Position numbers and translations under genes: made by a program | From: Streptomyces sp. MNU76 | Lineage (GTDB): Bacteria > Actinomycetota > Actinomycetes > Streptomycetales > Streptomycetaceae | Direction of reading: 5' to 3' | Assembly: GCF_020982545.1 (NCBI RefSeq) | Contig: NZ_JAJKLK010000003.1 | Location: 1,426,001 to 1,490,000 of the forward strand | DNA length: 64,000 nucleotides | Shown here: one piece after another, positions 15,111-41,183 of the stretch | How the letters are laid out: the number at the start of each line of letters is the position of its first letter | Position numbering within the stretch: the first letter of the stretch is position 1 | The notes under the pieces: generated by a model | What the model was told of the DNA's origin: nothing | Databases searched by the model: none | Seen by the model: only the letters and a program-made list of their open reading frames with translations

Positions 15111-15146
15111 GACCGGAGGCTTCCCAGGCCCGGGGCGACCTTGCCA

Positions 15147-16123: not shown

Positions 16124-16729
16124 CTAGCGGCCAGCGAGGAAGCAGCGAACCACTTCGTAAAGAGTGTCGGAGGTCGTCGCTCGATGCACGCCCGGCGTCA
16201 CATCGGGCAGCGGCTGGGAGCCGACGAGTGCGGTACAGGTTCCGGCCCTGTGGCCGGCGTTAATGTCGCAGGAGGAGTCGCCAACCATCCACGATGCGGA
16301 AAGGTCGAGATCGAGGTCGTGGGCGGCTTGGTGGAGCATGCCGGGGGCGGGCTTCCGGCATGAGCAGAGCCTGCGGTATCGGGGCACCGTGCCGTCCGGA
16401 TGGTGGGGGCAGGCGTAGATGCCGTCGAGCCGGACTCCGTGTCGGGCGAGGAGAGCGCGGAGTCGGTGGTGCATCGCGTCCAACGCTGCCGTGTCTAACA
16501 GCCCCCTCGCCAGCCCGCTCTGGTTCGTGACGACAACCAGGGCGAAGCCAGCGTGCTGGAGGGCGCGCAATGGCAAGCCGATATCCGGCTGTAGGACCAG
16601 CTCGTCGGGGTGGGAGGGATAGTGGCGGGGCTCGGTGAGGGTGCCGTCGCGGTCGAGGAACACCGCCCGTCGGCGCGGCCGACCAGCGCCTGTTGTCGGG
16701 GCGGACGGCGCCGGTTCATTCTGTCTCAC
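16124..16729 (-). CDS. gmhB: D-glycero-D-manno-heptose-1,7-bisphosphate phosphatase (GmhB-like HAD hydrolase)
   Basis: 201-aa HAD-superfamily phosphatase. HAD motif I is FLDRDGTLT (D26, D28), motif II VVTNQSGLARG and motif IV GDSSCDINAG. The Zn-binding loop typical of GmhB/HisB-type enzymes is present as YACPHHPDG...CSCRKPAPGM. GmhB removes the C7 phosphate from heptose-1,7-bisphosphate before nucleotide activation. It is the last gene of operon II and overlaps the epimerase gene by 14 nt. With the GmhA-HldE fusion and the HldD-like epimerase it completes an ADP-heptose route, and Streptomyces does not make lipopolysaccharide, so a specialised-metabolite sugar is likely. Confidence 0.9.
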   Translation of the reverse strand: MRQNEPAPSAPTTGAGRPRRRAVFLDRDGTLTEPRHYPSHPDELVLQPDIGLPLRALQHAGFALVVVTNQSGLARGLLDTAALDAMHHRLRALLARHGVRLDGIYACPHHPDGTVPRYRRLCSCRKPAPGMLHQAAHDLDLDLSASWMVGDSSCDINAGHRAGTCTALVGSQPLPDVTPGVHRATTSDTLYEVVRCFLAGR

Positions 16730-17693
16730 TGCCGCGGAAGGTCTCGAACAACTCGGCGGCGCGGGCTTCGATGGATTCGGCTGAGATGGTCGGCCGGTTG
16801 GGCAGGGCCTTGTCGAGAGCAGTCATGCCAGCGCAGGTGAAGTACTGGTAAGCGGCCGTGTCCGGGTTCGGTACCAGCTCCACGAGCAGAGGCCGACCGG
16901 TGGCCTCACGGTGCAAACGGGCGCACCACTGCACCACGTCCGCGAAGGACGTCGCGTAACCGCCACCGAAGTTGTAGACCCCAGCCGGCACCGGCGGCTG
17001 CTCGGCGAGCTGAACGATGGAGGCGGTGACTGTCTCGACGGGGATGTAATCGCGGGCGGCGGTCAGGGAGTCGTCGAAGACGCGGATCTGTCCTGTGCGG
17101 GCGGCTTGGCGCAGGAGCTGGGACAGGATCGAGGCCATCAGGCCCTTGTCGGCTTCATCGGGGCCGAAGACGTTGGTATAGCGCAACCCCACCCAATCGA
17201 GGCCGGTGACGTGGCGGGCGCGCATCTGCTGGTCGAGGGCGAGCTTGGAGGCGGCGTACGGGTTGAGCGGCCCGGAGCAGCGGGAGAAGTCAGAGTCCGC
17301 GTCCTCGGCGATCGGCGTGCGGTGGCGGAGGGTGCCGTAGACGGAGTGCGAGGAGGCGTAGATCAGACGGGTGCCGCCGGTGCGGCAAGCGTCGGCCAGC
17401 CGGAGCGGGCCGAGGGTGTTGGTCTCGTCCAGCTCAGGTCCGTGCGGAGCGCGGGTGTCGCTGATGCCGGCCTGGTGCACAACAGTGGCGTAGCGGCCGG
17501 CCGTGATCTCGGCGAGGAGAGCCGGGCTGGCGAAGTCGCCGCGCTGCCAGCGGGCCTTGCGGGCAAGGTGGTCGGGGGCTGGGCGCAGGTCGATGGCGGT
17601 GACGTGGTGTCCAGCGAGGTGGAAGGCGTCCACTGTGTGCCGGCCGATGAACCCGGCCGCCCCGGTGACCAATACGTTGCCTCCGGGGATCAT
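16716..17693 (-). CDS. NAD-dependent sugar-nucleotide epimerase (HldD-like)
   Basis: 325-aa short-chain dehydrogenase/reductase. The Rossmann motif is VLVTGAAGFIGRH, the catalytic region ASSHSVYG and NPYAASK (YxxxK). The segment RYTNVFGPDEADKGLMASIL resembles the HldD (RfaD) signature NVYGPxExxKGxMAS, and RDYIPVETV corresponds to the following region. It should interconvert the C6 configuration of ADP-heptose. Start ATG at 17693 overlaps the trifunctional gene stop by ATGA. Its gene position between the GmhA-HldE fusion and GmhB supports this reading. A 4-epimerase or other sugar-nucleotide modification cannot be excluded on sequence alone. Confidence 0.82.
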   Translation of the reverse strand: MIPGGNVLVTGAAGFIGRHTVDAFHLAGHHVTAIDLRPAPDHLARKARWQRGDFASPALLAEITAGRYATVVHQAGISDTRAPHGPELDETNTLGPLRLADACRTGGTRLIYASSHSVYGTLRHRTPIAEDADSDFSRCSGPLNPYAASKLALDQQMRARHVTGLDWVGLRYTNVFGPDEADKGLMASILSQLLRQAARTGQIRVFDDSLTAARDYIPVETVTASIVQLAEQPPVPAGVYNFGGGYATSFADVVQWCARLHREATGRPLLVELVPNPDTAAYQYFTCAGMTALDKALPNRPTISAESIEARAAELFETFRGSETE

Positions 17694-19651
17694 CGGGCAC
17701 CTGCCTGTTGGGTGAGCTGGTCGATGCGGTTGGTGGTGGAGTGACCGTCCAGGTAGGGCACCACGACGACCTCACCGTCCCAGCTCTCCACGAGGTCGGC
17801 TTCGGTGATCCGCTGGCCCGCATAGTCGCCGCCCTTGACCCAGATGTCGGGGCGGAGCTCGGCCAGCACCTTCTCGGGGGTGTCCTCGCCGAAGATGAGC
17901 ACGCCGTCCACGCAGTCCAGCGCCTCCAGCAGCGCGGTGCGCTCGCGTTCGCCGACGACCGGCCGGTCGTGCCCCTTGAGTCGGCGGACGGAGTCGTCGC
18001 TGTTGATGCACACCACCAGGGCGTCTCCGAGGCGACGAGCCTGGTGCAGGAGGGAGAGGTGTCCGGCGTGCAGCAGGTCGAAGCAGCCGCCTGCTCCCAC
18101 GACTTTCCCGCCGCGCGCTCGTACCCGCGCGGCTAGCTCCAGTGGCGCCGACGGGTCAGCGGGCTGCGGGACGTACAGGCTGGCGGGGCCGCCTGCTTGG
18201 ACGTAGCTGGTCGCAGCATCGACGGCCGCGGCCACGGCGTGTGACGGCAGCCGTCCGGCACCGAGCATCACGGCTGCGGTGACGGCCAGCTGGTCACCGG
18301 CCCCACAGGTGTCTCCAGCGGCCGGGCGGCCCGGGACGACCAGGGGGTGGGAGTAGGGGTCTGCGATCAGGACGGCGCCGTTGCGCCCCTGGGTGACGGC
18401 GATCTGCTTGACCGGCCACTCGGCCAGAAGCCGCACGCCCCGCCCGACATCGTCGCCGAGCTCCTGCGGCCCGCTGTCCCCGGTCAGGGCCTGGGCTTCG
18501 TCCGCGTTCGGGACGGCCAGGGCCGTCCCCGGGACCGGCTCGGCCCCCTTGGGGTGCGGGTCCCACACCAGCGGGCAGCGGCGGGCCGCGTCGGTGAGGG
18601 CCTGGCGGAGTTCGTCGTGTGCGCCGATGCCACGCCCGTAGTCACATACCAGCACGGCCGCGGCCTCGTCCAGCCGGGCGCGGGCGATGTCCGCAAGCGG
18701 GCCGAACCGCAGCGGGGAGGTGGCCGTGTCGAAGCGGAGCAGGGTGCGATCGGCGGCGCGGATACGGGTCTTGACCGGGGTGGTGCCGGCGGTGGCCAGG
18801 TCGACGACCTCGACGCCTGCCTGGTCCAGCAGGGTGCGGACCCGGGCCCCAGGGGTGTCTTGTCCGAGGCCGCACACGAGGGTGACGCGCCAGCCCGGCT
18901 CCCGGGCGGCCAGGACGGCGGCCAGTCCGGCGCCGCCCGGACGGTCGATGGCCTGCGTGTCGGCGATGACCGGTACGGGGGCCTCCGGTGAAAGGCGGTC
19001 GGCCGTGCCTGTGATGTCGCGGTCCAGCAGCACGTCGCCGACCACCACCAGCCGGCGCATGCCGTCCAGCTGTTCATCGTTGGACGCGGCCGGCCCGGTG
19101 AGGTGGGCGTCGATGGCCGCGCAAAGGACGTGCACGGCCACCAGGTGGCACTCCTGGACGGTGGCGGTCTGCTCGGCGTCCACGCACACCGCCTGATCGC
19201 TGGCCTCGGCAAGCGGGTTCGGTGCGGGGCCGGTCAGCGCCCAGACGGTGAGGCCGAGTTCCCGGCCCGCCTGGGCTGCGGCGAGCACGTTGGGGCTAGT
19301 GCCGGAGGTAGAGATCAGGAGTAGGACGTCGCCGGGGCGGCCGTGTGCGCGGACCTGCCGGGCGAAGACCTCCTGGGCGCCGTAGTCGTTGACGATGGCG
19401 GTCACCGAAGAGGAATCTGCGTGCAGCGCGATGGCGGACATGGGCACCCGCTCGGCGCGGAAGCGGCCGACGAGTTCGGAGGTGAGGTGCTGGGCCTCGG
19501 CCGCCGAGCCGCCGTTGCCCGCGACGAGCAGTCGCCCGCCCGCGGGCAGTCGTCCGGCGAGGAGGCTGCCCCATGCCTGGAGGCGGGCGACATCAAGCAG
19601 GGGTAACGCAACGGAGAGCGCCTGTATGTGCGCGCGGCCCAGCTGGGGCAC
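17690..19651 (-). CDS. Trifunctional GmhA isomerase / HldE kinase / HldE adenylyltransferase fusion
   Basis: 653-aa fusion of three heptose-pathway activities. Residues 1-190 are a SIS-domain sedoheptulose-7-phosphate isomerase (GNGGSAAEAQHLTSELVGRF, STSGTSPNVLAAA). Residues 195-495 are a PfkB-type heptose-7-phosphate kinase (GDVLLDRDITG, GGAGLAA, GAGD at 450-453). Residues 515-653 are a nucleotidyltransferase of the RfaE-II type (GGCFDLLHAGHLSLLHQARRLGD, VKGGDYAG). The GTG start at 19651 follows GAGGGAG. In most bacteria GmhA is separate from the HldE kinase-adenylyltransferase. Together with GmhB this one protein could take sedoheptulose-7-phosphate to ADP-heptose. Its stop overlaps the epimerase ATG. 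Confidence 0.93.
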   Translation of the reverse strand: MPQLGRAHIQALSVALPLLDVARLQAWGSLLAGRLPAGGRLLVAGNGGSAAEAQHLTSELVGRFRAERVPMSAIALHADSSSVTAIVNDYGAQEVFARQVRAHGRPGDVLLLISTSGTSPNVLAAAQAGRELGLTVWALTGPAPNPLAEASDQAVCVDAEQTATVQECHLVAVHVLCAAIDAHLTGPAASNDEQLDGMRRLVVVGDVLLDRDITGTADRLSPEAPVPVIADTQAIDRPGGAGLAAVLAAREPGWRVTLVCGLGQDTPGARVRTLLDQAGVEVVDLATAGTTPVKTRIRAADRTLLRFDTATSPLRFGPLADIARARLDEAAAVLVCDYGRGIGAHDELRQALTDAARRCPLVWDPHPKGAEPVPGTALAVPNADEAQALTGDSGPQELGDDVGRGVRLLAEWPVKQIAVTQGRNGAVLIADPYSHPLVVPGRPAAGDTCGAGDQLAVTAAVMLGAGRLPSHAVAAAVDAATSYVQAGGPASLYVPQPADPSAPLELAARVRARGGKVVGAGGCFDLLHAGHLSLLHQARRLGDALVVCINSDDSVRRLKGHDRPVVGERERTALLEALDCVDGVLIFGEDTPEKVLAELRPDIWVKGGDYAGQRITEADLVESWDGEVVVVPYLDGHSTTNRIDQLTQQAGAR

Positions 19652-19740
19652 GGTCAACTCCCTCGAAGGACAAAGTAGACAGCGTCGGGGCGGTTGCCGG
19701 GGTGCTGGCGCTCGCCGACCAGCGCCGGCACCCCGAGGGC

Positions 19741-21123
19741 TTAGGACGCGGCGGGCCGGTAGCGGGCAAACAGCGGGCCGTACGCGGTCAGTGCGCGGTC
19801 GCGCTCCAAGAGCGGATAGTCCAGGAGCTTGTCGACGATGCGATGTTCGGCGAGGAGGCGCTCGGCGTGCTGGAGCAGCACGGTGTCGCCGAGTTCGGTG
19901 AGGTGGACGCCGTCGCTCCACACGCCGCCTGCCTGATCGTCGGCGGGCAGGTGACGGGCGACAGCGGTGAACGGGGTCCACACGTCCAGGAACAGTGCGC
20001 CGTGAGCGGCGGCGGCCTTGCGGGCAGCCTCGTTGTAGCGGGCGAGTTCGATGTTCATGGCGGCAACGGTCCCGGGGTCCTCGATCGGGCCGAAGGGGGT
20101 CTCGCTGATGACCACGATCTGCCGGGAGTAGCCGGTCAGCTGTTCCAGCATGGCGGTGATGTGCCGGGTGTACTCATCGAGGTCGACCGCCTCGGACAGC
20201 CGGTTCTGGAAACGACGCCAGACATCGTTGATGCCGCAGCCGAGGAACACGAGGTCGTAGTCGGTGCCGGTGGTCGCCCTGTCAGCTTCCACGAGGGAGG
20301 CGATGTCCCGGCTCGTGGCACCGCCCTCGCCGTGATTGCGGATGTCGAAGCCGATGTGGGCGTGGGCACCGCGCAGGGAGAGCGTGAGGCGGTGCACCCA
20401 GCCGCGCTGATGCCAGCCCTCGACGGTGACCTTGGAGCCGACCTCGGGCAGGTTGGCCTGGGTGGTCATCTGCGCGTTGAACGCTTCGAGGTGCTCCATG
20501 ATGCTCGTCCCGAAGAACCCCACGGTCAGGGTGCGCCGGTCCTCGCTCGCGACGGGGGCGCCGTCGAAGTGGCGGCGCACTGCGGCCGGGACGCCGGCGG
20601 CGACCGTGTCGGGGGCGATGCTGTGGGCGACGACCGCGTTGGCCCCGACCAGGACGTTCGCCCCGATGCGGACGCCGCCGGTGACTGTGACCTTGTTCGA
20701 CAGGGTTGCGCCCGGCTCGATGATGATCGGCGCGGCCTCGAATCCGGACGCCCACGGCACGAGTTGCCCGGTGGGCACGTTCGCGGCGGTGCGTACGCGG
20801 TGGTTGTGGTCGTGGAGGTCGACCATGTTTGACAGGGCCGCGCCGTCGCCGAGGCTGATGCCGACCATGGCGGAGATGAAGGTGTGCTCCCCGATGGCGA
20901 CGTCGTTGCCGATGGTGACGGTGGCGCCGCGGTGGACCTGGATGGTGGACCCGCGCCGGATGCAGACCCGGTCGCCGATTGTCAGGTGGGCGCCGGTGTC
21001 GAGCTCGATCACGAGGTCGTCGGGCAGGTCGCAGTCCTCGCCGAGGGTGAGCGCCGTGCCGTGCTGGGCGCGCAGCCGGTCGGCTGCCGGCAGTTCGGAA
21101 GGGGCAGGGGTGGTGCTGGTCAT
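19741..21123 (-). CDS. Left-handed beta-helix / SGNH hydrolase two-domain protein
   Basis: 460-aa protein with two domains. Residues about 20-185 have the hexapeptide repeats of a left-handed beta-helix acyltransferase (LTIGDRVCIRRGSTIQVHRGATVTIGNDVAIGEH shortened here by position: 47-80; also GVRIGANVLVGANAVV). Residues about 198-440 form an SGNH/GDSL esterase-like domain: FFGTSIMEH (Ser207), GCGINDVWRRF (Gly/Asn block) and DGVHLTELG (Asp404, His407). The usual GDS is GTS. Such a pair could add and remove, or transfer, an acyl group on a sugar. The gene is followed after 89 bp by the heptose fusion and preceded by the carbamoyltransferase. The acyl donor and acceptor are unknown. Confidence 0.8.
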   Translation of the reverse strand: MTSTTPAPSELPAADRLRAQHGTALTLGEDCDLPDDLVIELDTGAHLTIGDRVCIRRGSTIQVHRGATVTIGNDVAIGEHTFISAMVGISLGDGAALSNMVDLHDHNHRVRTAANVPTGQLVPWASGFEAAPIIIEPGATLSNKVTVTGGVRIGANVLVGANAVVAHSIAPDTVAAGVPAAVRRHFDGAPVASEDRRTLTVGFFGTSIMEHLEAFNAQMTTQANLPEVGSKVTVEGWHQRGWVHRLTLSLRGAHAHIGFDIRNHGEGGATSRDIASLVEADRATTGTDYDLVFLGCGINDVWRRFQNRLSEAVDLDEYTRHITAMLEQLTGYSRQIVVISETPFGPIEDPGTVAAMNIELARYNEAARKAAAAHGALFLDVWTPFTAVARHLPADDQAGGVWSDGVHLTELGDTVLLQHAERLLAEHRIVDKLLDYPLLERDRALTAYGPLFARYRPAAS

Positions 21124-21210
21124 CGCGAATCGGTCCTGTTCGCTTGATGCGGATGATGGCCACGGGGCCGGCCCTCAACCTACCGGCCGTGAACGGGTGG
21201 TGTCGGACAG

Positions 21211-22935
21211 TCAGTTCGGCTGCTCCTTGAGTACGAGGAACGGGCCGATGGCGAGTGCGTCCAGGGGGCTGGCGGCGAAGGTGGCGACTGCGTCGCGGGG
21301 GGTGCACACGATCGGCTCGGCCTCGTGGTTGAACGAGGTGTTCAGCAGCGTGGGCGGCCGGCCGGTCTGCTCGGCGAACGAGGCGAGGAGGCGCGCGTAC
21401 GGGTCGGCGTCGTCGCGGGCGACGGTCTGCGGGCGCAGCGTGCCGTCGGAGTGGACGGCGGCCGGGATCACCTGGTGCGCGGCCTCGGTCGCCTGCCGGG
21501 CGACGATCATGAACGGGTGGGGGACGCTCGTACCGATCAGAGCGGACGCGGCCTCCTCCAGGAGGGCAGGGGCGAGGGGCCGCCACGGTTCCCGGTGCTT
21601 GATGCGGTCGTTGATGTGGTCGCGGGCCCGGGTGTGGTGGGCATCGGCGAGGATACTGCGCCGGCCGAGCGCGCGGGGCCCGGCCTCCATGCGCCCCTGG
21701 AACCAGCCGATGGTGCACCCGAGCGCCAGGTGCCCGGCCACCACGGTCGGCAGGTCGTCGCCGTGGTCGCGGAAGGCCAGGCCGTAGTCGTTGAGGGTCG
21801 CACGGATAGTAGCTGGGTCGAAGGCGGGGCCGAGGGCGGCGGCGGTCATCGCCTCACCGGGCAGCGCCAGGTCGCCGCGCCGCACCGCGACCTCAAGGGC
21901 GGCGCCGAGGGCGCACCCGGCGTCCCCGGCGGCTGGCTGGACGAACAGCTCATCTACGCCGCGCAGGGCGGCAAGGCGGCCGTTGGCGGAGCAGTTCAGG
22001 CCGACCCCGCCCGCGACACACAGACGCCGGGACCCGGTGAGCGTGAGGACTTCGCGGGCCAGCTCGGCCAGGCACTGCTCCAGCAGGTGCTGCGCCGAGG
22101 CGGCAAGGTCGGCGTGCTCGGGCCCAAAGCCCGTGTCGGGCACGACGCGTCCCCCGCTGTAGGTGCGGGCGCGACGGTGGGGCGGGATGCCGAGGCCGGT
22201 GTACGCGGCGGCGTACGCGGCCTTCAGACGCCGGTAGTAGCGCAGGTCGGTGTACTGGTCCTCGACCGGTTCGTCGGGGCGGATCCCGTAGCGGGACAGG
22301 TCCAGGTGGTAGCCCCCGGCCTGGGGCGTGAGGAAGTCCAGCTGGTAGCGGTTCGGGTTGCCGTAGCCGGCCAGGCCCATGAGCTTGCCGGAGCTGGTCC
22401 AGTCCCCGAGCCCGAGGTGTTCGGCGACCGTCTCGTAGAACCAGCCCAGGGACTGGGAGAAGGGGAACTGGCGCAGGACCTTCAGCCCGCTGGTAGTGCC
22501 GTGGGCGAGGGTGGCGGAAATGCCGTCGCCGGAACCGTCGACCACCAGGACGGCGGCCTCGTCGAACCCGGCAGGGTGGAACGCCGAGGCAGCGTGCGCG
22601 AGATGGTGCTCGATCACGGTGACCTGCCGGGGCCGGTGATGGCCGAACAGGCTGGGGTCGAGGAGTTCGGCGATCAGCTCCATGTCCGTACACGTGTCGC
22701 TCGGCTCGGGCCAGGCGGGGTTGAACGCGATGGCGATCTCGTCGACCTGGTCGAGGGTGATGCCGGCCTCGGACAGGCAGTACGCCGCGGCCACCGCGCA
22801 GGAGCGGGAGTCCTTGTGGTGCTTGCGGCGGGAGAACCGCTCTTCCTCGGCGAAGGCCACGATGCGGCCGTCGATGACCAGACAGGCGGAGGCATCGTGG
22901 TAGTACGGGCCGCCCAGTCCCAGCACGGTTCCCAA
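21211..22935 (-). CDS. O-carbamoyltransferase (NodU/CmcH/TobZ family)
   Basis: 574-aa carbamoyltransferase that uses carbamoyl phosphate and ATP to carbamoylate a hydroxyl. The N-terminal Kae1-like domain has GLGGPYYHDASACLVIDG, FAEEERFSRRKHHK, EHHLAHAASAFHPAGF (metal-binding His) and VVDGSGDG. The C-terminal domain has GRMEAGPRALGRRSILAD, INDRIKHREPWRPLAPALLEE and LNTSFNHEAEPIV. I prefer TTG at 22935, which has GAGAAGGAG upstream; the longer GTG at 22965 places that RBS inside the coding region. In operon II the acceptor is probably a sugar or nucleoside hydroxyl of the pathway product. Confidence 0.93.
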   Translation of the reverse strand: MGTVLGLGGPYYHDASACLVIDGRIVAFAEEERFSRRKHHKDSRSCAVAAAYCLSEAGITLDQVDEIAIAFNPAWPEPSDTCTDMELIAELLDPSLFGHHRPRQVTVIEHHLAHAASAFHPAGFDEAAVLVVDGSGDGISATLAHGTTSGLKVLRQFPFSQSLGWFYETVAEHLGLGDWTSSGKLMGLAGYGNPNRYQLDFLTPQAGGYHLDLSRYGIRPDEPVEDQYTDLRYYRRLKAAYAAAYTGLGIPPHRRARTYSGGRVVPDTGFGPEHADLAASAQHLLEQCLAELAREVLTLTGSRRLCVAGGVGLNCSANGRLAALRGVDELFVQPAAGDAGCALGAALEVAVRRGDLALPGEAMTAAALGPAFDPATIRATLNDYGLAFRDHGDDLPTVVAGHLALGCTIGWFQGRMEAGPRALGRRSILADAHHTRARDHINDRIKHREPWRPLAPALLEEAASALIGTSVPHPFMIVARQATEAAHQVIPAAVHSDGTLRPQTVARDDADPYARLLASFAEQTGRPPTLLNTSFNHEAEPIVCTPRDAVATFAASPLDALAIGPFLVLKEQPN

Positions 22936-22995
22936 CGTGTGCTCCTTCTCGCAGTCGCCCAACACCCCGCGGCGCGGGGCGGGTTCAGACAGTGG

Positions 22996-24165
22996 TCAGG
23001 TCAGGTGGTCGAGGGTGGCCTTGAGGACGGCCGGAACGTCGATGGTGTCCATGCAGCCGCCGACCCCGCCGCAGGCAACCTGGTGGGCGCACGGCGAGCA
23101 CGCCAGCATCGAGCGCAGCGCGGTCACGTTCGTCACGTGCTTGGGGATGACCTCGGCACCGTTGCTCGGCCCGAGCAGCAGCACGGCCGGCCTCTTGTGT
23201 GCGAGCGCGAGATGGAAGCCGAAGGAGTCCCCGGTCACCACCGCGTCGACCAGGCCCGGCAGCGCGGCGGCCTCCTCCAGGCTGAGCGGCGCGTACGCCA
23301 CCCGGGACTCGTCGGCACCCCGCAGCCGCAGGTGCCGCACCAGGGCCTCGCACGCGTCGCGGTCGCTCGGGCCGCCGAGGACGGCTAGCTGCGCCCCGTG
23401 GTCGACGAGGGCGTCGCCGAGCTCGGCCCAGTGCCGCGCCGGCCACAGCTTCGTCGGCAGCGACCCGCCCAGATTCAGGCACACCCTGGGACCGGTCCGC
23501 TCCCCGAGAAGCCCGGCCGCGCGCCGCCGGGCGGCCTCCGGCACTTCCAGGACGTACGGCTCGCCCGCATACGTGTAGCCGGAGACGGCGAAGTACAGCT
23601 CCGTCCACGTCTGCTGGTTGCCGATCGTGCGGTAGTCGTTCCAGGTGTTCTGCCGGAAGAACTGCATCGCCGCCGCGCCCATCGGATACAGGACGTGGTC
23701 GGGGCCGCCGAAGGCGAGCCCCGCCTTGTGCCCGGCGTCGATGCGGTCGACCAGCGCCGCCGCGGACGGAGTCCGCTCGAAGGAGTACACCGCGTCGAAA
23801 CGGCGCGACGGCAGCTGGGCGGCGGCCTCCCAGTCGTGGACGAGGACTTCGTCCACGTACGGGTTCATCCGCAGGATCGGCGCGCACGCCTCGTCCACCA
23901 GCCAGGTGATGTGCGCGCCGGGCTTCTCGGCGCGAATCCGCGCGGGAAGGGGGGAGGCGATCAGCATGTCCCCCAGCAGGCCGAGCATCACGATCAGGAC
24001 CCGGTGGTCGACGGGGTCGCGATGCGGGCAGCCGTGGCACGGGCGCCAGTGGCGGCAGGGTCTCCCGCCGGCGAAGTGCCGGCAGTCCGAGTGGATCTCG
24101 AACGTGTCCACGGTGTGCACGGGGCCAAGGAAGGCGCCCCGGACAGGGAGTTGCTCCGGACTCAC
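22996..24165 (-). CDS. Glycosyltransferase family 9 (heptosyltransferase-like) with Cys-rich N-terminus
   Basis: 389-aa GT-B glycosyltransferase resembling ADP-heptose:LPS heptosyltransferases: VLIVMLGLLGDMLIASPLPARIRA, AHITWLVDEACAPIL, CLNLGGSLPTKLWPARHW, and VVTGDSFGFHLALAHKRPAVLLLG. The start GTG at 24165 overlaps the SHMT stop (GTGA). The first 50 residues hold HSDCRHF, RPCRHWRPCHGCPH and later ACSPCAHQVACGG, so several cysteines could bind a metal or a cluster. It is the obvious enzyme to transfer the heptose made by operon II. The acceptor is unknown. Confidence 0.88.
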   Translation of the reverse strand: MSPEQLPVRGAFLGPVHTVDTFEIHSDCRHFAGGRPCRHWRPCHGCPHRDPVDHRVLIVMLGLLGDMLIASPLPARIRAEKPGAHITWLVDEACAPILRMNPYVDEVLVHDWEAAAQLPSRRFDAVYSFERTPSAAALVDRIDAGHKAGLAFGGPDHVLYPMGAAAMQFFRQNTWNDYRTIGNQQTWTELYFAVSGYTYAGEPYVLEVPEAARRRAAGLLGERTGPRVCLNLGGSLPTKLWPARHWAELGDALVDHGAQLAVLGGPSDRDACEALVRHLRLRGADESRVAYAPLSLEEAAALPGLVDAVVTGDSFGFHLALAHKRPAVLLLGPSNGAEVIPKHVTNVTALRSMLACSPCAHQVACGGVGGCMDTIDVPAVLKATLDHLT

Positions 24166-25445
24166 ACAGCACCCCCGGCTCCGACGGCCGCCAGAGCAAC
24201 GCGCAGGACCTGCTCGTCGGCCCCGTCGCCCTGGTGCGCCTCCACCAGGGCGCGCGTGCGCGCCGCCACGGCGGCCGGGTCGCGGCCGTCGCGCAGCACG
24301 GCGGTGAAGATGTCGGTGAGCTCGTCGATCCCCGCCGCGTCCATCCCGGCCCAGGACACCTCCTGCAGGCCCAGGCGCAGCCCCGCCGGGGCGGTGATGT
24401 GCGGCAACGGGATCGCGTTGACGACGATCCCCGCCTCGAACAGCCGACGGGAGGCTTCCTCGGCGGCCAGCAGCGGGGCGATGTCGATCCACAGCTGATG
24501 GCAGTCGGTGAACCCGCCCTTCTCCCCGCACACCGTGAACCCGCGCTCGGCCAACCCCGCTCCCATACGGCGGGCATTGGCGACGGTGGCCGCCGCGTAC
24601 GCGGCGCCGCAGGCGTCCATCTCGGCGGCGGCTACGGCCAGGGCGACGACGTCGGCCGGATGGTGATGGGAGACGAAGTGCGAGGCGTGCTCATCTAGCC
24701 GGGCCGCGAGCTGGGCGTCGTTGGTGGCCAGCAGTCCCTTGTGCGGGCCCGGGTAGGTCTTGTGGGTGGAGCCGCCGAGGCTGTCCGCGCCCTCCGCGAG
24801 CGGGTTCTGCCACGCGCCGCCCGCGATCAAGCCCAGTGTGTGGGAGGCGTCGTAGTGGATCAACGTGTCGGCGCCGACCACCTCGCGCAGCCCGGACAAG
24901 TCCACGGGGAACAGGCACATGAACGCGTCCAGGTACACCAGTTCCGGCCGCGGCTGGCCACCCAGCAGACGGGCGAGGGCGTCCAGGTCGAGGGTGGACG
25001 TGGCCGGGTCGACCGGCAGATCTTCCATCTGCAGGCCCAGCCGGGTACCGATGAAGCGGGTCGAGCCGTGCCCGCCGTCCCGCTCCGCCAGATTGAACGC
25101 CCTCGCCCCGGGGCGGGCCAGCGCGGAGAGCGCCACCGTCAGCGCCGAAACCCCCGACACCGGCTTGAGGTTCACGTGGCGCGCGCCCAGCTGCGCGCCG
25201 ATCCGCACGGCCGCGGCACGCTCGATATCGACCAGATCCTGCCGTCCCGGCCACGCCCAGTTCTCGCCTCCGCCGTCGGGGCCGGGAAAGGCGTACCGCA
25301 CGGCGGCCTCCGTCAGGTGCGGCACCCGGGCGGCCAGCGACAGCCCATTCTCGCTCGGCACCAGATGCAGCCGGTGCCGGGCAGCGTCGTGGTGGGCTGC
25401 CGCCTGCCGCAAGGCGGTAAGCACGTCGGGTGGGGTGCGGGTCAC
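24162..25445 (-). CDS. SHMT-like PLP-dependent enzyme
   Basis: 427-aa fold-type I PLP enzyme of the serine hydroxymethyltransferase family. Typical features are HLVPSENGLS near the N-terminus, HVNLKPVSGVSALTVAL, YDASHTLGLIAGG (Asp199, His202) and STHKTYPGPHKG with Lys229 as the PLP Schiff-base lysine. GTG start at 25445 overlaps the P450 stop (GTGA). Family-length is about 420. In antibiotic clusters such paralogues can transfer a hydroxymethyl group or act as threonine-aldolase-like C-C bond formers. The second His and Tyr contacts look changed from housekeeping GlyA, so a non-folate role is possible. Confidence 0.9.
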   Translation of the reverse strand: MTRTPPDVLTALRQAAAHHDAARHRLHLVPSENGLSLAARVPHLTEAAVRYAFPGPDGGGENWAWPGRQDLVDIERAAAVRIGAQLGARHVNLKPVSGVSALTVALSALARPGARAFNLAERDGGHGSTRFIGTRLGLQMEDLPVDPATSTLDLDALARLLGGQPRPELVYLDAFMCLFPVDLSGLREVVGADTLIHYDASHTLGLIAGGAWQNPLAEGADSLGGSTHKTYPGPHKGLLATNDAQLAARLDEHASHFVSHHHPADVVALAVAAAEMDACGAAYAAATVANARRMGAGLAERGFTVCGEKGGFTDCHQLWIDIAPLLAAEEASRRLFEAGIVVNAIPLPHITAPAGLRLGLQEVSWAGMDAAGIDELTDIFTAVLRDGRDPAAVAARTRALVEAHQGDGADEQVLRVALAAVGAGGAV

Positions 25446-26749
25446 GAAGCGATCTCCTGACGGTCGAGGACGAGCGGCACCGCAGTGAGTGGGGCCTTGG
25501 CCGGCCGGTAGCGGATCCGGCTGGGCGCCCCACCGGGCAGCCGCGGCACGCCCTGGTGAAGGACCGAGGCCATGACGGTGAGAGCCATCAACTCGGCGAG
25601 CGGCCGGCCCAGGCAGGCGTGCGCGCCGCCGCCGAACGCCCACAGCCGCGCCCCGCGGGCCTCGCCGTCCAGGAACCGCAGCGGCCGGAACGTATGCGGC
25701 TGCGGGAAGACCTCGGGGTCGAAGTGCCCGGCCGACGTGGAGTACGCCACCCGGGTACCGGCCGGGATCCTGTAGCCGCCCAGGTCCACCGGGCACACTG
25801 CCTCCCGCAACGAGAGCAGGTTCGGCGAGTGGAGACGCTGAGCCTCGGCGAGAACTGCCCGCAAAACGGGCACGGCATCCCGCCGCGCCAGCACCTCCGG
25901 CGTAACCACGGCCACGTGCGCCTCCGTCTGCGCGAGCACCGCGTGCTCCTGGTTGGCGGCCAACTCGACCAGGCACCAGGTGATCAGGCTCGCCGTCGTC
26001 TCCCTCGCCGCGATCAGCAGCGCCAACAGGTGATCCGGCAGCGGGCCCACCGCCTGTGACGCATCCGCGAACGCGGCCACCAGACCTGCCAACGCCGAGT
26101 CCGTACCAGGCTCGGCGACAGCCGCAGCCGCTCGGCGGGTGAACAGGGCATGCAACCGCCGACGGGCTGCACGCCCCGCCCAGTAGCGGCCAGTCATGAA
26201 CCGGTCCCGCCCCGGCGGAGCGCCGGACCCGGCGACGAACGGCTCGAACACGGCCGCGAACACGGCCGCGTCCGCCGTCTCGGGAGCGATGCCAAGCAGT
26301 ACCCGAGCGCTCAATGAGCCGGTGAGCGCCCGCACCTCCGTGTACAGATCTCCCACGCCGTGCTGCGCCCACCGGGCCGCCACCGGGTCCGTCACCTCCA
26401 GCAGGGCTGGCAAGTATCCAGGCAGAGCCCGGCCCGACAGCGCCGGCCGCAGCCTGCGCCGAGCATCTGCGTGCCCCTCACCAGTGAGGTTGAACAAGGC
26501 GCGGCCGAACAGGTCATGCACCAGCCGAGTGTTGAGCACCTCCAGACAACCGCGCTCGCCGGCGAACAGCTCAACCAGCCCCGCCCAGGTGCCCACCAGC
26601 ACCGTCTCCTGCCCGTCGACCGCCATCCGAAAGACCGGCCCGTGCCGACGATGTCCTTCCTCCAGGGCCCCCAGGGGGTCCAGGTCGAAACTCCGCACCG
26701 TGTGGTGCGGGGGTAACCCGCAGGCCGCCGACGCGGCCTGCTCAGACAC
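25442..26749 (-). CDS. Cytochrome P450
   Basis: 435-aa bacterial class P450 monooxygenase. The heme-binding loop is FGGGAHACLGRPLAE with the Cys ligand at 379. The I-helix is LLIAARETTASLITW (A-R-E-T-T instead of AGxET), the K-helix ExxR is EAQR and the PERF-like region is TFRPLRF. GTG start at 26749 overlaps the radical SAM gene stop by 8 nt. It should hydroxylate or cross-link the pathway intermediate using a ferredoxin encoded elsewhere. No redox partner gene is present in this window. Confidence 0.93.
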   Translation of the reverse strand: MSEQAASAACGLPPHHTVRSFDLDPLGALEEGHRRHGPVFRMAVDGQETVLVGTWAGLVELFAGERGCLEVLNTRLVHDLFGRALFNLTGEGHADARRRLRPALSGRALPGYLPALLEVTDPVAARWAQHGVGDLYTEVRALTGSLSARVLLGIAPETADAAVFAAVFEPFVAGSGAPPGRDRFMTGRYWAGRAARRRLHALFTRRAAAAVAEPGTDSALAGLVAAFADASQAVGPLPDHLLALLIAARETTASLITWCLVELAANQEHAVLAQTEAHVAVVTPEVLARRDAVPVLRAVLAEAQRLHSPNLLSLREAVCPVDLGGYRIPAGTRVAYSTSAGHFDPEVFPQPHTFRPLRFLDGEARGARLWAFGGGAHACLGRPLAELMALTVMASVLHQGVPRLPGGAPSRIRYRPAKAPLTAVPLVLDRQEIAS

Positions 26750-27854
26750 CCGACCGCTCCAGAACGTCCAACTGCCGGGCCGCGCGGGCGGTGACGGCCG
26801 CGTGGTCGATCCCGGCCACCTCCAGTGGCGGCGTGCACGCGCAGTCCTCGGGCAAATCGTCGGCCTCGCCCGTTTCTCCGAATCGCATCAGCGCGTCCAC
26901 CACCCGATCCGCGCAGACAGGGCAGGCATCCGGGAACACCGACTCGAAGTCCGTCCCCCGCAGGTTCACACACGCCACCCGCACCGCGAGCCGCTCATGG
27001 ACCCGCCGGATCGCCTCCACCACGGTCCACAGGTTCGGCGGCACGTACTGCCCGGCCCGCCACAGCTCCCACGCCACCGTGTTCCGCGACACCCGTGTCG
27101 GGCACAGCGTCATCCCCTGGACCCCGAGCCCGGTCAGGTAGTCCACCGACTGCACCACGTCGGTCACCGCCTCGCCGTCGGTCAGGAACGGCGGCTTGAC
27201 CATCAGGTAGATCTTCGGATCCACTCCCAGGCGGACCATCACCATCAGCGCGCGTTCAAAGGAGACCTGGGAGATCCGGGTGTTCACCAGCGTCTCGCGC
27301 ACCAGCGCGTCTGCGGACTGCAAACCGATCCCGATCTCCAGCCGCACCTCGCCCAGGGCCTGGACGAACGGGGTCAGCGCTCGCTCGGTGACGAACTGCG
27401 GCAGCGACTCCACCACCAGCCGCTTCACCCCGGCCGCCGCGACCAGCCGGGCGATCTCCACCTGGACGTTTCGCGGGATCTCCCGTGGCGCGAAGAAGCT
27501 GCCGTCGTTGTAGAGGGAGAGCACCTCGTACGGCGGCTCGCCCTCGGTCCGTTCCAGGGTGTGACGTACCTGATCCAGCAGACTCTCGCGCGAGGTCCCG
27601 CCGTGGATGCCGTAGTTGTTCAGATTGGTGAAAGGGCACATCGTGCAGGTCGGCACCGAGCAGCCGCCCGACATGACGATGACCTTCTTTCGGCCGACAA
27701 CGTCACCGTGCGGCAGCCGGATCATGTCGTAGTCGACGAACCGAGGCTCCGCCGGCTTCTGCGTCCCCGAAGTGCGTAACTGTAAGGACAGATCACCGAT
27801 CCGGCGACGCAGGTCCTTCACCGTCACCGGCGAGTCGAGCGCGTGCTCAGGCAT
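26742..27854 (-). CDS. Radical SAM enzyme (Elp3/RaSEA-like subfamily)
   Basis: 370-aa radical SAM protein. The ATG at 27854 has a GGGGG RBS. The cluster motif is MSGGCSVPTCTMCPF (C65, C70, C73), that is CX4CX2C rather than CX3CX2C. The TIM-barrel region follows with SLYNDGSFF, VESLPQFVT and EIGIGLQSADALVRETLVN. The C-terminus has extra cysteine pairs (DACPVCADR and EDCACTPP) that could bind a second metal centre. The CX4CX2C pattern with this context is reminiscent of Elp3-like and archaeosine RaSEA-type enzymes. It heads operon II as annotated and overlaps the P450 gene. The reaction is unknown. Confidence 0.88.
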   Translation of the reverse strand: MPEHALDSPVTVKDLRRRIGDLSLQLRTSGTQKPAEPRFVDYDMIRLPHGDVVGRKKVIVMSGGCSVPTCTMCPFTNLNNYGIHGGTSRESLLDQVRHTLERTEGEPPYEVLSLYNDGSFFAPREIPRNVQVEIARLVAAAGVKRLVVESLPQFVTERALTPFVQALGEVRLEIGIGLQSADALVRETLVNTRISQVSFERALMVMVRLGVDPKIYLMVKPPFLTDGEAVTDVVQSVDYLTGLGVQGMTLCPTRVSRNTVAWELWRAGQYVPPNLWTVVEAIRRVHERLAVRVACVNLRGTDFESVFPDACPVCADRVVDALMRFGETGEADDLPEDCACTPPLEVAGIDHAAVTARAARQLDVLERSGV

Positions 27855-27948: not shown

Positions 27949-28191
27949 TCAATGCTTGGGAAGACGGCCTCGAACCGCCAGCCCATTGAGTGCGAACCGG
28001 ACAGACGACAACACTGCGATACGCAACGCCCGCGCATCCGAATGTGGAGGACTCCGATGGCCTAGGAGCTGTAGCGATGGAGGAACATACGCTCGCCTTG
28101 AGGGTGAAGAAGGCACCGGCACACTCGAAGAGTGAGCAGAGCGGATTCCACTGGGTAGCCGACGGTCCGCCGTGGGCGGCGTGGACAGCAT
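27949..28191 (-). CDS. Short ORF started by promoter-leader copy B (uncertain)
   Basis: 80 codons beginning at the ATG at 28191, which is in the same place relative to promoter cassette B as the Nudix ATG is relative to cassette A: 55-56 nt after the conserved block, with a conserved GGGAGG RBS. The product (MLSTPPTADRRLPSGIRSAH...) is Ser/Pro/Arg-rich and matches no family I know. It may be a leader peptide, a decayed gene or an artefact of leader conservation. It lies 94 bp upstream of the radical SAM gene. Confidence 0.35.
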   Translation of the reverse strand: MLSTPPTADRRLPSGIRSAHSSSVPVPSSPSRRAYVPPSLQLLGHRSPPHSDARALRIAVLSSVRFALNGLAVRGRLPKH

Positions 28192-28300
28192 GACGGGGCC
28201 TCCCAGGGGACGACGAATCAATCCACTTGCCGCCTATGACCGCGACGACCCGGGTGCCCGTTGCCGGACTCCGGCGAGTCTATCTGGCTTGTGCGGCAAG
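28192..28300 (-). promoter_or_regulatory. Conserved promoter-leader cassette, copy B (upstream of operon II)
   Basis: Minus strand TAGACT (28277-28282), 11 nt, block GGCAACGGGCACCCGGGTCG (28246-28265), leader, GGGAGG and the ATG at 28191. It is nearly identical to copy A over about 90 bp, in the same orientation 15.9 kb away. The radical SAM operon begins about 340 bp downstream of its ATG region, with only the uncertain 80-codon ORF between. Confidence 0.68.
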
Positions 28301-28306
28301 GGCCAT

Positions 28307-39608: not shown

Positions 39609-40832
39609 ATGACCGATGTGACCGTGGCCCCCGACGAGGCCACCCGGCTCCGCAACAAGGTCGTCGACCAGCTCAAGGAGGACGGCACGATCGTGTCGCC
39701 CGCGGTCGAGGCCGCCATGCGCAAGGTACCCCGGCACCTTGCCGTACCGGAGGCACCGCTCAGCGACGCATACAGCACGTACAACGCCGTGATCACGCAT
39801 GAGGACGAGCACGGCAATCACACCAGCTCAGTGTCCGCTCCGCAGATCCAGGCGATGCAGCTGGAGCAGGCCGGCATCCGCCCGGGTGACAACGTGTTGG
39901 AGATCGGCACCAACGGGCCTAACGCTGCCTACCTCGCGGAGCTGGTGGGACCCGCCGGTCAGGTCACCACCGTCGATATCGACCCCTCGCCCGCCGACCG
40001 AGCCAAGCGGTTCCTCACCGAGACCGGCTATGCGGACGTCAACGTCGTCGTCGCCGACGCCGAGAACGGCCTTCCCGAGCACGCCCCCTACGACGCGATC
40101 GTGGTGACGGTCGGCTCCTGGGACATCCCGCCCGCCTGGATCGACCAGCTCAAGGACGACGGCCGGCTCGTCGTGCCGCTGCGCATCAACGGCCTGACCC
40201 GCACGTACGGGTTCATCCGGCAGGCTGACCACCTCGTCGCCACCAGCGCCCACGTGTGCGGTTTCGTAGCGGTGCAAGGTGTTGGCTCCCACGCCCAGCA
40301 GGTCATGCAGCTCCCCGGAGCGGAGGGCATCACTCTGCGCTTCGACGAGGGCTTGCCCGCCAACCCCTCTCTGCTGGACGGCGTCCTGAACAGCGCCCGC
40401 GCCGAGACGTGGACCGGGGTGACCGTCGCCAGCCAGGAGCCCATCGGCACCCTCCAGATGTACCTGTCCACGCAGGTCCCGACGTACTGCTTCATGTCCA
40501 CCAAGCCCGAGTTGACCACCGGCAAGATCGGCCCCACGGGCAACAGCTGGTCCATGGTCGCCATCGACGGGCCGCACTTCGCCTACACCGTCGTGCGCCG
40601 CGACACCGAGAAGAAGACCGCAGAGTACGGCGTCCACGCCTTCGGGCCCGACGCGGCCGAGTTCGCTGAGCGAATCGCCGACATCCTCCGCACCTGGAGC
40701 GAAAAGGTCCGCGGCGCTGACGGCCCACGCATCGCCGTCTACCCGGCGGGCACGCCCGATGACCGGATCACCGGCGACCGGATCATCGACAAGAGGCACA
40801 GCCGGATTTCGATCTCCTGGCCGACCGTCTGA
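39609..40832 (+). CDS. Methyltransferase, FxLD system (first copy)
   Basis: 407-aa PCMT-like O-methyltransferase characteristic of FxLD lanthipeptide clusters. The N-terminal half has the family pattern: VAPDEATRLRNKVVDQLKEDG, MRKVPRHLAVPEAP, SVSAPQIQAMQLEQAGIRPGDNVLEIGTNGPNAAYLAELVG, cut here to its parts. The SAM motif I is LEIGTNGPNAA where the usual form is GxGxGY. The C-terminal half (about 220-407) is the extension of this family. Relatives of PIMT in class I lanthipeptide clusters (for example OlvSA) convert an Asp to isoaspartate through methylation. It is the gene directly upstream of the precursor peptide. Confidence 0.88.
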   Translation: MTDVTVAPDEATRLRNKVVDQLKEDGTIVSPAVEAAMRKVPRHLAVPEAPLSDAYSTYNAVITHEDEHGNHTSSVSAPQIQAMQLEQAGIRPGDNVLEIGTNGPNAAYLAELVGPAGQVTTVDIDPSPADRAKRFLTETGYADVNVVVADAENGLPEHAPYDAIVVTVGSWDIPPAWIDQLKDDGRLVVPLRINGLTRTYGFIRQADHLVATSAHVCGFVAVQGVGSHAQQVMQLPGAEGITLRFDEGLPANPSLLDGVLNSARAETWTGVTVASQEPIGTLQMYLSTQVPTYCFMSTKPELTTGKIGPTGNSWSMVAIDGPHFAYTVVRRDTEKKTAEYGVHAFGPDAAEFAERIADILRTWSEKVRGADGPRIAVYPAGTPDDRITGDRIIDKRHSRISISWPTV

Positions 40833-40890
40833 ACCGCGGCGCTGGGCCAGGGCGTTCTGCACCATCCCATCGGACAAAGAGAGTGATCGC

Positions 40891-41097
40891 ATGACCACTG
40901 CCGTACTCGACCACCCCACCGCCCCTGCCGTGCTGCCGGTCGACAGCCTCGCCGACGACGACTTCGAGCTGGACATCAAGGTCGTCATCTCCGAGAGCCC
41001 CCTCACCGTCTTCATGTGCCCCACCAGCGACGGCTGCGGCAACACCTGCGTGAACGGGGCCAGCGCCTGCCAGTCCTCCATCGAGGACGCCGCCTGA
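40891..41097 (+). CDS. FxLD-family lanthipeptide precursor
   Basis: 68-aa precursor peptide. The leader holds the diagnostic FELD (residues 25-28, in DDDFELDIKV). The core has four cysteines (C43, C49, C53, C60) and several dehydratable residues (T39, T45, S46, T52, S58, S62, S63), a typical arrangement for lanthionine rings. Candidate Asp residues for isoaspartate formation are D47 and D66. The cleavage site is not obvious. The ATG at 40891 follows GAGAG. A strong stem-loop follows the stop before the dehydratase gene. Confidence 0.93.
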   Translation: MTTAVLDHPTAPAVLPVDSLADDDFELDIKVVISESPLTVFMCPTSDGCGNTCVNGASACQSSIEDAA

Positions 41098-41110
41098 CAC
41101 GCGGCGTCCG

Positions 41111-41144: not shown

Positions 41145-41183
41145 CACCCCCGTCCGCGCACCCCACAACAGGAAGGGACACCG

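What the first reader, a model, noticed from the sequence alone, without database searches (positions are those of the whole stretch)
16124..27854. Unassigned biosynthetic operon: heptose, carbamoyl, radical SAM, P450, SHMT
Nine coupled genes encode an ADP-heptose route, a heptosyltransferase-like GT9, an O-carbamoyltransferase, an acyl-transfer/esterase fusion, an SHMT-like enzyme, a P450 and a CX4CX2C radical SAM enzyme. I know no described antibiotic pathway with this set. Streptomyces lacks LPS, so the heptose should decorate a specialised metabolite.
Basis: partly seen in the sequence, partly recalled or inferred. Interest (0 to 1): 0.85.

Follow-up and report, generated by a model that had tools for sequence, protein, structure and literature searches.

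The report
Mobile heptose natural-product operon in actinomycetes
A nine-gene operon in a Streptomyces genome, shared with Kitasatospora, Sphaerimonospora, Catenulispora and Nocardia and also carried on plasmids and a mobile element, probably makes an undescribed small molecule with a carbamoylated seven-carbon sugar, and it often sits near genes for a peptide antibiotic-like product.

Summary
The nine genes are real, at the stated coordinates, with intact catalytic motifs. Eight of them lie together in 16 of 20 loci that encode the radical SAM protein (three more are cut by contig ends, one lacks them) in Streptomyces, Kitasatospora, Sphaerimonospora, Catenulispora and Nocardia, and on two linear plasmids; six Nocardia species share the region at 99.96-100% identity. 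Only 3 of 392 same-genus genomes have it. The carbamoyltransferase is TobZ-like. The radical SAM protein is a distant RaSEA (archaeosine enzyme) relative in a genome without TGT. The SHMT-like enzyme lacks the SHMT YAEG glutamate. New here: in 5 of 14 genomes or records an FxLD lanthipeptide cluster lies within 25 kb (a sixth has only its methyltransferase), and in the window both share an upstream DNA element. Best reading: a self-contained pathway to a carbamoylated heptoside of a small amino-acid-derived aglycone, since 8 of 14 show no such cluster nearby; decoration of the lanthipeptide is the main rival. No paper on this cluster was found in the open-access library.

The parts
26742..27854 (-). 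Radical SAM protein, 370 aa, CX4CX2C cluster motif and C-terminal CX2C...CXC; distant RaSEA (TIGR01210) relative
   Evidence: NCBIfam TIGR01210 165 bits, cut-off 212; 16-row alignment, motif cysteines invariant; AlphaFold model pLDDT 80.8, loop after the cluster motif under 50, radical SAM fold
25442..26749 (-). Cytochrome P450
   Evidence: PF00067; motifs; haem cysteine invariant in the 11 aligned (the stub of L012 was left out)
24162..25445 (-). SHMT-like PLP enzyme (aldolase/transaldolase type)
   Evidence: PF00464; closest solved relatives archaeal SHMT 4uqv and 7k34, deposited as threonine aldolase; PLP lysine invariant in the 14 aligned
22996..24165 (-). GT9 heptosyltransferase-like glycosyltransferase with an N-terminal four-cysteine motif
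   Evidence: PF01075 76 bits, cut-off 22; 11-row alignment
21211..22935 (-). O-carbamoyltransferase, TobZ type; start codon uncertain (22926-22965)
   Evidence: PF02543 and PF16861; TobZ 3ver E 2e-125
19741..21123 (-). Left-handed beta-helix acyltransferase fused to an SGNH esterase
   Evidence: PF13472, PF00132; model (pLDDT 63, C-terminal half better) matches acetyl-xylan esterases; catalytic residues invariant in the 13 aligned
17690..19654 (-). GmhA-HldE fusion (isomerase, kinase, adenylyltransferase)
   Evidence: SIS_2, PfkB, CTP_transf_like; NCBIfam
16716..17693 (-). HldD-like ADP-heptose 6-epimerase
   Evidence: TIGR02197 175 bits, cut-off 274.6; YxxxK
16124..16729 (-). GmhB-like heptose bisphosphate phosphatase
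   Evidence: PRK08942 155.5 bits, cut-off 178; DRDGT
28188..28303 (-). Upstream element shared with the nudix/ABC operon and the nudix-APH operon
39609..45456 (+). Frequent neighbour, not part of the operon: FxLD lanthipeptide genes (methyltransferase 39609-40832, precursor 40891-41097, dehydratase from about 41106 to 44233 in two parts, LanC 44230-45456)
   Evidence: TIGR04364 502 bits, cut-off 320; TIGR04363 53.3, cut-off 30; TIGR03891; Lant_dehydr_N, Lant_dehydr_C, LANC_like

Best explanation
A self-contained, horizontally mobile pathway for a small heptosylated metabolite. GmhA-HldE, GmhB and HldD make ADP-L-glycero-D-manno-heptose from sedoheptulose 7-phosphate (inferred from families and motifs). 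The SHMT-like enzyme adds the glycine carbons of glycine or threonine to an aldehyde, giving a beta-hydroxy-alpha-amino acid; the radical SAM enzyme and the P450 make that aldehyde or remodel the aldol product (inferred; order and substrates unknown). GT9 puts the heptose on the aglycone, possibly on the new beta-hydroxyl. The TobZ-type enzyme carbamoylates a sugar hydroxyl, and the LbH/SGNH fusion adds and removes an acetyl group, perhaps as temporary protection. In several lineages it is kept near, and in the window strain perhaps co-regulated with, an FxLD lanthipeptide cluster, which I read as co-production. Shown: gene content, motifs, conservation, co-location, mobility, rarity. Not shown: any activity, or the product.
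For: Families and motifs. Eight genes together in 16 of 20 loci and on both plasmid hits. The search was seeded with the radical SAM protein; an independent check with GT9 found close relatives (86% or more) only in the same 3 of 392 genomes. TobZ, which carbamoylates an aminoglycoside sugar (recalled), is the best solved relative of the carbamoyltransferase, E 2e-125. The SHMT-like protein aligns with archaeal SHMT and 7k34 and has RYAF where SHMT has YAEG; own-genome SHMT paralogues are 29-35% identical, so it is not the housekeeping copy. One glycosyltransferase only. 8 of 14 genomes or records with the cassette show no lanthipeptide genes near it, and 7 of 14 have no LanC match at all at E 1e-10, so the cassette does not need the lanthipeptide.
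Against: An FxLD lanthipeptide cluster lies within 25 kb in 5 of 14, so a joint product is possible. No exporter or scaffold gene was seen with the cassette in all loci (not every flanking gene was annotated). The P450 is cut to 22% of its length in the Streptomycetaceae MAG. GmhB was found in 7 of 19 loci (in some others the DNA held ends at HldD); in three Nocardia loci a different HAD-like protein (by eye; no Pfam match) follows the LbH-SGNH gene. In N. brevicatena the radical SAM gene stands without the others.
Confidence: 0.5

Rival explanations
1. Where an FxLD lanthipeptide cluster is near, the cassette decorates that peptide (a heptosylated, carbamoylated lanthipeptide), or both make one joint product.
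For: LanC matches at 47-100% identity lie on the cassette's contig, 7-25 kb away, in 5 of 14 genomes or records (window, G110, a Catenulispora MAG, K. phosalacinea, Kitasatospora MBT63), with dehydratase, FxLD methyltransferase (over the TIGR04364 cut-off in all five) and an FxLD precursor (TIGR04363 over cut-off in three; G110 and Catenulispora by similarity). Sphaerimonospora has an FxLD methyltransferase 0.7 kb after HldD. In the window and G110 the same DNA element precedes the cassette and the nudix-APH gene that opens the lanthipeptide region.
Against: 8 of 14 with the cassette show no lanthipeptide genes near it: S. filamentosus, Streptomyces sp. A 4/2, pFRL3, pFRL5 and four Nocardia genomes. 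SHMT-like, P450 and radical SAM would be odd for mere decoration.
Confidence: 0.2
2. A decorating module for a scaffold made elsewhere in the genome, as the bleomycin sugar genes serve bleomycin.
For: Carbamoyltransferase, glycosyltransferase, sugar synthase and epimerase parallel BlmD, BlmE, BlmC and BlmG (passages of PMC7017467; the GT9 nature of BlmE is recalled). The heptose part occurs with other genes in G188, G166, G038 and G173.
Against: P450, SHMT-like and radical SAM genes are present in 16 of 20 loci and on both plasmids. Largest called ORF in the window 873 aa, so no megasynthase there.
Confidence: 0.12
3. The heptose goes to a surface glycan or glycolipid.
For: 111 of 295 same-genus genomes match the fusion query; the G217 locus has GmhA, HldE, two GT9, GT2, GT4 and a carbamoyltransferase.
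Against: One glycosyltransferase; no flippase or polymerase family among the nine; P450, radical SAM and PLP enzymes are not usual glycan machinery; patchy and mobile distribution. Hydropathy does not decide: GT9 reaches 1.97 and P450 1.65 over 19 residues, above the usual 1.6 (recalled), the other seven stay below it.
Confidence: 0.12
4. Nucleic-acid modification related to archaeosine.
For: The only NCBIfam match of the radical SAM protein is RaSEA.
Against: Below the RaSEA cut-off; no TGT match in the genome while 14 of 14 control genomes have one; CX4CX2C here against CX8CX2C in the one other bacterial TIGR01210 match read.
Confidence: 0.02

Closest known systems
Septacidin/spicamycin and hygromycin B heptose pathways (sedoheptulose 7-phosphate route)
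   Same: Heptose for Streptomyces metabolites made by ADP-heptose-type enzymes (passages of PMC10948575 and PMC11461863; the PNAS paper is not held)
   Different: Those are a nucleoside antibiotic and (recalled) an aminoglycoside; no radical SAM (RaSEA-like), SHMT-like, P450, GT9 and TobZ set is known to me there. Their clusters were not compared here.
Bleomycin sugar genes BlmC, BlmD, BlmE, BlmG
   Same: Sugar synthase, carbamoyltransferase, glycosyltransferase and epimerase act together (PMC7017467 passages)
   Different: Sugars come from GDP-mannose and GDP-gulose; scaffold is NRPS/PKS (recalled); no GmhA-HldE fusion, SHMT-like or RaSEA-like gene in the passages read.
Tridomain NDP-heptose synthetases of actinobacteria (Tang et al. 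2022)
   Same: Isomerase/kinase/nucleotidyltransferase fusion (PMC11573728 passage)
   Different: Known to me by title and citing text only (not held); whether it covers this cluster is unknown.
RaSEA, archaeosine radical SAM enzyme
   Same: Only profile match; similar C-terminal CX2C...CXC in the bacterial match L062 (by eye)
   Different: Below cut-off, CX4CX2C motif, no TGT, small-molecule gene context
TobZ, O-carbamoyltransferase
   Same: Nearly whole-length match E 2e-125
   Different: Acceptor sugar here should be a heptose, untested
FxLD lanthipeptide clusters
   Same: A neighbour in 5 of 14 genomes or records
   Different: The heptose cassette is not among the FxLD genes that I know (recalled)

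Membership tests
RaSEA (TIGR01210) | Score over the curated cut-off (212.15 bits) | tested here: not met
   165.1 bits
RaSEA (TIGR01210) | Organism has tRNA-guanine transglycosylase to supply the substrate | tested here: not met
   No PF01702 match in the genome; 14 of 14 controls positive
RaSEA (TIGR01210) | ArcS partner protein | not tested
   No ArcS search was run; none among the nine genes
ADP-L-glycero-D-manno-heptose pathway | GmhA, HldE kinase, HldE adenylyltransferase, GmhB and HldD homologues with catalytic motifs | tested here: met
ADP-L-glycero-D-manno-heptose pathway | Equivalog cut-offs of the NCBIfam models | tested here: not met
   HldD 175/274.6; HldE 276/521; rfaE domain II 180.6/181.5; GmhA 176.7/276; GmhB 155.5/178
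GT9 heptosyltransferase | PF01075 over cut-off, conserved Lys and Asp/His motifs | tested here: met
   76.1 of 22 bits; TKLWP, DSFGFH; invariant K240, D314, H319 (query numbering)
GT9 heptosyltransferase | LPS heptosyltransferase I, II or III equivalog | tested here: not met
   83.1/185.3, 75.2/134.6, 35.5/170.2
TobZ-type O-carbamoyltransferase | Both Pfam domains, nearly whole-length match | tested here: met
4-Fluorothreonine transaldolase (TIGR04506) | Curated cut-off 650 bits | tested here: not met
   218.3 bits, model positions 63-402 of 609
L-threonine transaldolase | Transaldolase activity with L-threonine | not testable with these tools
   Similarity to 7k34 only
Serine hydroxymethyltransferase | YAEG glutamate of the SHMT active site (role recalled) | tested here: not met
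   RYAF here; RYAF, RYCF, RYSF or RYAC in the 14 aligned
Bleomycin-type cluster | NRPS/PKS megasynthase beside the sugar genes | tested here: not met
   Largest called ORF in the window 873 aa
Septacidin/hygromycin B heptose cluster | Same gene set in the characterised cluster | not tested
   Cluster sequences not compared; papers not held
FxLD lanthipeptide cluster (the neighbour) | FxLD precursor and FxLD methyltransferase over curated cut-offs | tested here: met
   Window precursor 53.3 of 30 bits; methyltransferases 502 and 414 of 320 bits

The most novel reading that the evidence does not exclude
A radical SAM enzyme of the RaSEA (archaeosine) lineage has left RNA modification and works in small-molecule biosynthesis, where with a transaldolase-like SHMT and a P450 it builds a new amino-acid-derived aglycone that is heptosylated and carbamoylated; the whole pathway spreads between actinomycete genera on plasmids and an integrative element and is repeatedly kept beside an FxLD lanthipeptide cluster, with which it may act or even be joined.
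Probability: 0.4. Interest if true: 0.8.

Novelty: new variant of a known kind. Interest (0 to 1): 0.65.

Why it matters
Few bacterial metabolites are known to carry heptose, and no RaSEA-family enzyme outside RNA modification is known to me (both recalled). A nine-gene pathway without any megasynthase can be moved whole into a laboratory Streptomyces, so product, sugar and radical SAM chemistry are directly testable, and so is the link to the lanthipeptide. It also shows a heptose pathway passed between species on mobile DNA; NDP-heptoses are described as agonists sensed by vertebrates (title of PMC11573728).

Tried and rejected
Archaeosine or queuosine role: rejected, no TGT match in the genome. 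Precursor peptide inside the operon: gaps are too short for a gene. The DNA just upstream of the radical SAM start is conserved in Streptomyces and Kitasatospora (8 of 9 aligned; L010 diverges) but I saw no shared peptide there. Leader RNA: 18 pairs, only 1 with a change on both sides, so no support; Rfam gave one chance-level match. Conserved neighbours: two HTH/TPR-like regulators upstream only in S. filamentosus, Streptomyces sp. A 4/2, pFRL3 and pFRL5 among the loci compared; nucleoside hydrolase genes only in Nocardia. The APH and HTH genes at 29024-31302 are not a conserved part. Structure matches of the radical SAM model (biotin synthase, HydE, Elp3, viperin, queuine lyase among the 50 rows shown, Z 13.4-15.7) show only the common fold. 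Distance-matrix correlations of the eight proteins are high, but no housekeeping gene was run as control and shared ancestry alone could give them; they show that the genes have similar histories, no more.

Ten paper searches: 8, 14, 15, 27, 28, 55, 56, 57, 86, 87. I saw listings, and passages of PMC10948575, PMC11461863, PMC11573728, PMC7017467, PMC7162832 and PMC11298593. One search listed 15 of 31 papers; of those I read passages of one. The library lacks most subscription journals.

Own slips: my radical SAM queries start at the third codon; searches list mechanical starts that are too long for several genes. output was cut, so the G166 neighbourhood was seen only in part. The alignments left out near-identical loci (16, 14, 11, 13 and 11 rows).
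Full report
OBSERVATION. On the minus strand of 16124-27854 lie radical SAM (26742-27854), P450 (25442-26749), SHMT-like (24162-25445), GT9 (22996-24165), O-carbamoyltransferase (21211 to about 22935), an LbH acyltransferase fused to an SGNH esterase (19741-21123), GmhA-HldE (17690-19654), HldD (16716-17693) and GmhB (16124-16729). Catalytic motifs are present in all nine (the residue roles are recalled from the families). The window is G000:C3:1426001-1490000 of a 10.5-Mb genome in 37 contigs. The same-genus sample contains the genome of S. filamentosus (G371 and G392 have the same places), hence Streptomyces.

DISTRIBUTION. A scan of genome contigs with the radical SAM protein gave 20 loci. 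In 16 of 20 the same eight genes (radical SAM, P450, SHMT-like, GT9, carbamoyltransferase, LbH-SGNH, GmhA-HldE, HldD) lie together; L012, L019 and L022 are cut by contig ends (L012 also has only a P450 stub), and L020 (Nocardia brevicatena) has the radical SAM gene without the rest. Hosts: Streptomyces filamentosus, Streptomyces sp. A 4/2, a Streptomycetaceae MAG, Kitasatospora phosalacinea, Kitasatospora sp. MBT63, Sphaerimonospora thailandensis, two Catenulispora MAGs (the same DNA where compared) and Nocardia. In the Nocardia cassettes GmhA-HldE and HldD lie upstream of the radical SAM gene. Two linear Streptomyces plasmids, pFRL5 and pFRL3, carry the cassette in the window's order (pFRL3 without GmhB). 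Among 392 same-genus genomes the radical SAM protein is in 3, the window's own included. GT9, searched on its own, is found at 86% identity or more in the same 3; 15 others match weakly over about 110 residues. Distances of the eight proteins over 14 of the 19 loci held correlate (r 0.96-0.99, within clades 0.89-0.97); there was no housekeeping control.

MOBILITY. Six Nocardia species (N. arizonensis, puris, carnea, asiatica, speluncae, wallacei) share the region at 99.96-100% DNA identity over 13-21 kb. In five of them the shared DNA runs on for 49-94 kb at 99.85-99.96% identity to N. puris, with a common right end. What follows that end differs in each genome; in four of five a strong hairpin (60-base fold -28 to -32 kcal/mol) begins within about 10 bases, and in the fifth (N. 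speluncae) one is visible by eye about 60 bases away. No control for such hairpins was run. This points to recent transfer of an integrative element; its left end was not reached.

WHAT THE PARTS DO. Heptose route: homologues of every enzyme are present, but no NCBIfam equivalog cut-off is met. The fusion is a known type: PMC11573728 (passages) names tridomain isomerase/kinase/nucleotidyltransferase enzymes, citing a paper on their distribution in actinobacteria that is not held. Carbamoyltransferase: TobZ, E 2e-125, hence a sugar hydroxyl is the likely acceptor. LbH-SGNH: both catalytic sets invariant in the 13 aligned; the esterase half resembles acetyl-xylan esterases; the model is weak overall (pLDDT 63). 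SHMT-like: nearest solved relatives are archaeal SHMT and 7k34; it is not fluorothreonine transaldolase (218 of 650 bits); the YAEG of SHMT is replaced. Radical SAM: only RaSEA matches, below cut-off; CX4CX2C in all 16 aligned against CX8CX2C in one other bacterial match; TIGR01210 matches are rare in the phylum (2 of 396 genomes, the own one included); no TGT in the genome. RaSEA converts preQ0-lysine in tRNA to archaeosine (abstract and passages of PMC11298593); without preQ0-tRNA this enzyme must act on something else. GT9: motifs intact, with an extra N-terminal Cys4 motif invariant in the 11 aligned.

THE LANTHIPEPTIDE NEXT DOOR. At 39609-45456 of the window lies an FxLD lanthipeptide cluster: precursor (TIGR04363, 53.3 of 30 bits), methyltransferase (TIGR04364, 502 of 320 bits; a second one at 47749-49053, 414 bits), dehydratase in two parts and LanC. 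With its LanC as query, 14 genomes or records that hold the cassette were searched. In 5 (window, G110, a Catenulispora MAG, K. phosalacinea, Kitasatospora MBT63) the best match lies on the cassette's contig, about 16, 24, 7, 24 and 24 kb from the radical SAM gene. Dehydratase, FxLD methyltransferase and a small FxLD-type precursor accompany it in each (the Catenulispora precursor gave no profile match with the coordinates I sent, but is 54% identical to the window's over 52 residues). Sphaerimonospora has an FxLD methyltransferase (460.5 of 320 bits) 0.7 kb after HldD and only a weak LanC match elsewhere. In the other 8 (S. filamentosus, Streptomyces sp. A 4/2, pFRL5, pFRL3 and four Nocardia genomes) no LanC lies near: 7 have no match at E 1e-10, one Nocardia has a weak one on another contig. 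S. filamentosus does keep a nudix-APH gene (49% over 457 aa), a nudix gene and an ABC transporter (50%) like the window's, about 20-30 kb from the cassette. The association is repeated across three genera and is no accident of one genome, but it is not obligatory. No count of FxLD clusters without the cassette was made.

LOCAL REGULATION. A 20-base core (TCCGGNAACGGGCACCCGGG) occurs three times without mismatch in the genome, all in this window and each upstream of a gene start: before the heptose operon (28249-28268), before a nudix/nudix-nudix/nudix/ABC operon (12381-12400) and before the nudix-APH gene that opens the lanthipeptide region (36161-36180). Three more copies with two mismatches lie elsewhere in the genome; the reversed control gave 0 (alignment). 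A weaker fourth copy lies at about 49236. G110 has the same three and the fourth. No copy with two mismatches or fewer was seen in the other 17 loci, nor in the further stretches of other genomes. This suggests co-regulation in these two strains only.

AGAINST AN EASY READING. Heptose genes in Streptomyces do not by themselves mean a metabolite: 111 of 295 genomes match the fusion query at E 1e-40, and the G217 and G092 loci pair HldE with a GT9 and a carbamoyltransferase; G217 adds GmhA, a second GT9, a GT4 and two GT2-like genes, one of them tested. Full-length fusions were listed in 6 of the 295 (own genome, G110, G188, G166, G038, G173) plus a broken one in G009. Within the 30-38 kb fetched around G188, G166, G038 and G173, none of the six other cassette proteins matches at E 1e-8; HldD and GmhB accompany the fusion in G188, GmhB in G166. 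So the heptose part is a module used by several clusters.

MECHANISM AND VERDICT. I infer: ADP-L-glycero-D-manno-heptose is made; the PLP enzyme makes a beta-hydroxy amino acid from an aldehyde; radical SAM and P450 prepare or remodel it; GT9 glycosylates; the product is carbamoylated and transiently acetylated. Only gene content, conservation, co-location and mobility are shown. Confidence 0.5 for the outline; much less for the order of steps. A real, conserved and mobile biosynthetic operon, undescribed within the searches named; a new variant of the known kind 'heptose-containing actinomycete metabolite'. Product unknown.

Noticed in passing
window 12319-12435, 28188-28303, 36157-36191 and about 49236: A shared upstream element stands before the heptose operon, a nudix/ABC operon and a nudix-APH gene; three perfect copies of the 20-base core in 10.5 Mb, three more with two mismatches, reversed control 0.
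   Followed up: partly
L016, L017, L018, L019, L025, L026 (Nocardia); N. puris G398:C16 to position 93841: Near-identical integrative element in several Nocardia species; its right end abuts strong terminator-like hairpins in 4 of 5 genomes, without a control.
   Followed up: partly
window 13693-15267: DDE_5 transposase gene inside 121-nt perfectly complementary inverted repeats, unusually long; this 1.57-kb stretch is missing from G110, which is 95-97% identical on both sides.
   Followed up: no
window 39609-49053; L178, L173, L175, L177, L048: FxLD lanthipeptide clusters near the heptose cassette in three genera; the window has two FxLD-type methyltransferases.
   Followed up: partly
window 859-5812: Three consecutive genes that look like tyrosine recombinases, as in recombinase trios or Tn554-type elements (label recalled; no family search run).
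   Followed up: no
L159 and L160 (G217:C81), L161 and L162 (G092:C1): Another heptose locus in Streptomyces with HldE, GT9 and carbamoyltransferase, in G217 also GmhA and further glycosyltransferases; possibly a surface glycan.
   Followed up: partly
L155-L158 (G038, G173), L151-L152 (G188): GmhA-HldE fusion among other genes: luciferase-like oxidoreductases and ABC exporters (G038; G173 similar), or a phenylacetate-CoA-ligase-like gene and ABC genes (G188); labels read by eye.
   Followed up: no
L015 39-3697 and L020 5030-9533: P450-like genes (by eye; no Pfam match for the one tested) and an acyl-CoA oxidase-like gene (below its cut-off) stand before the cassette in Nocardia sp. alder85J and before the lone radical SAM gene in N. 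brevicatena.
   Followed up: no
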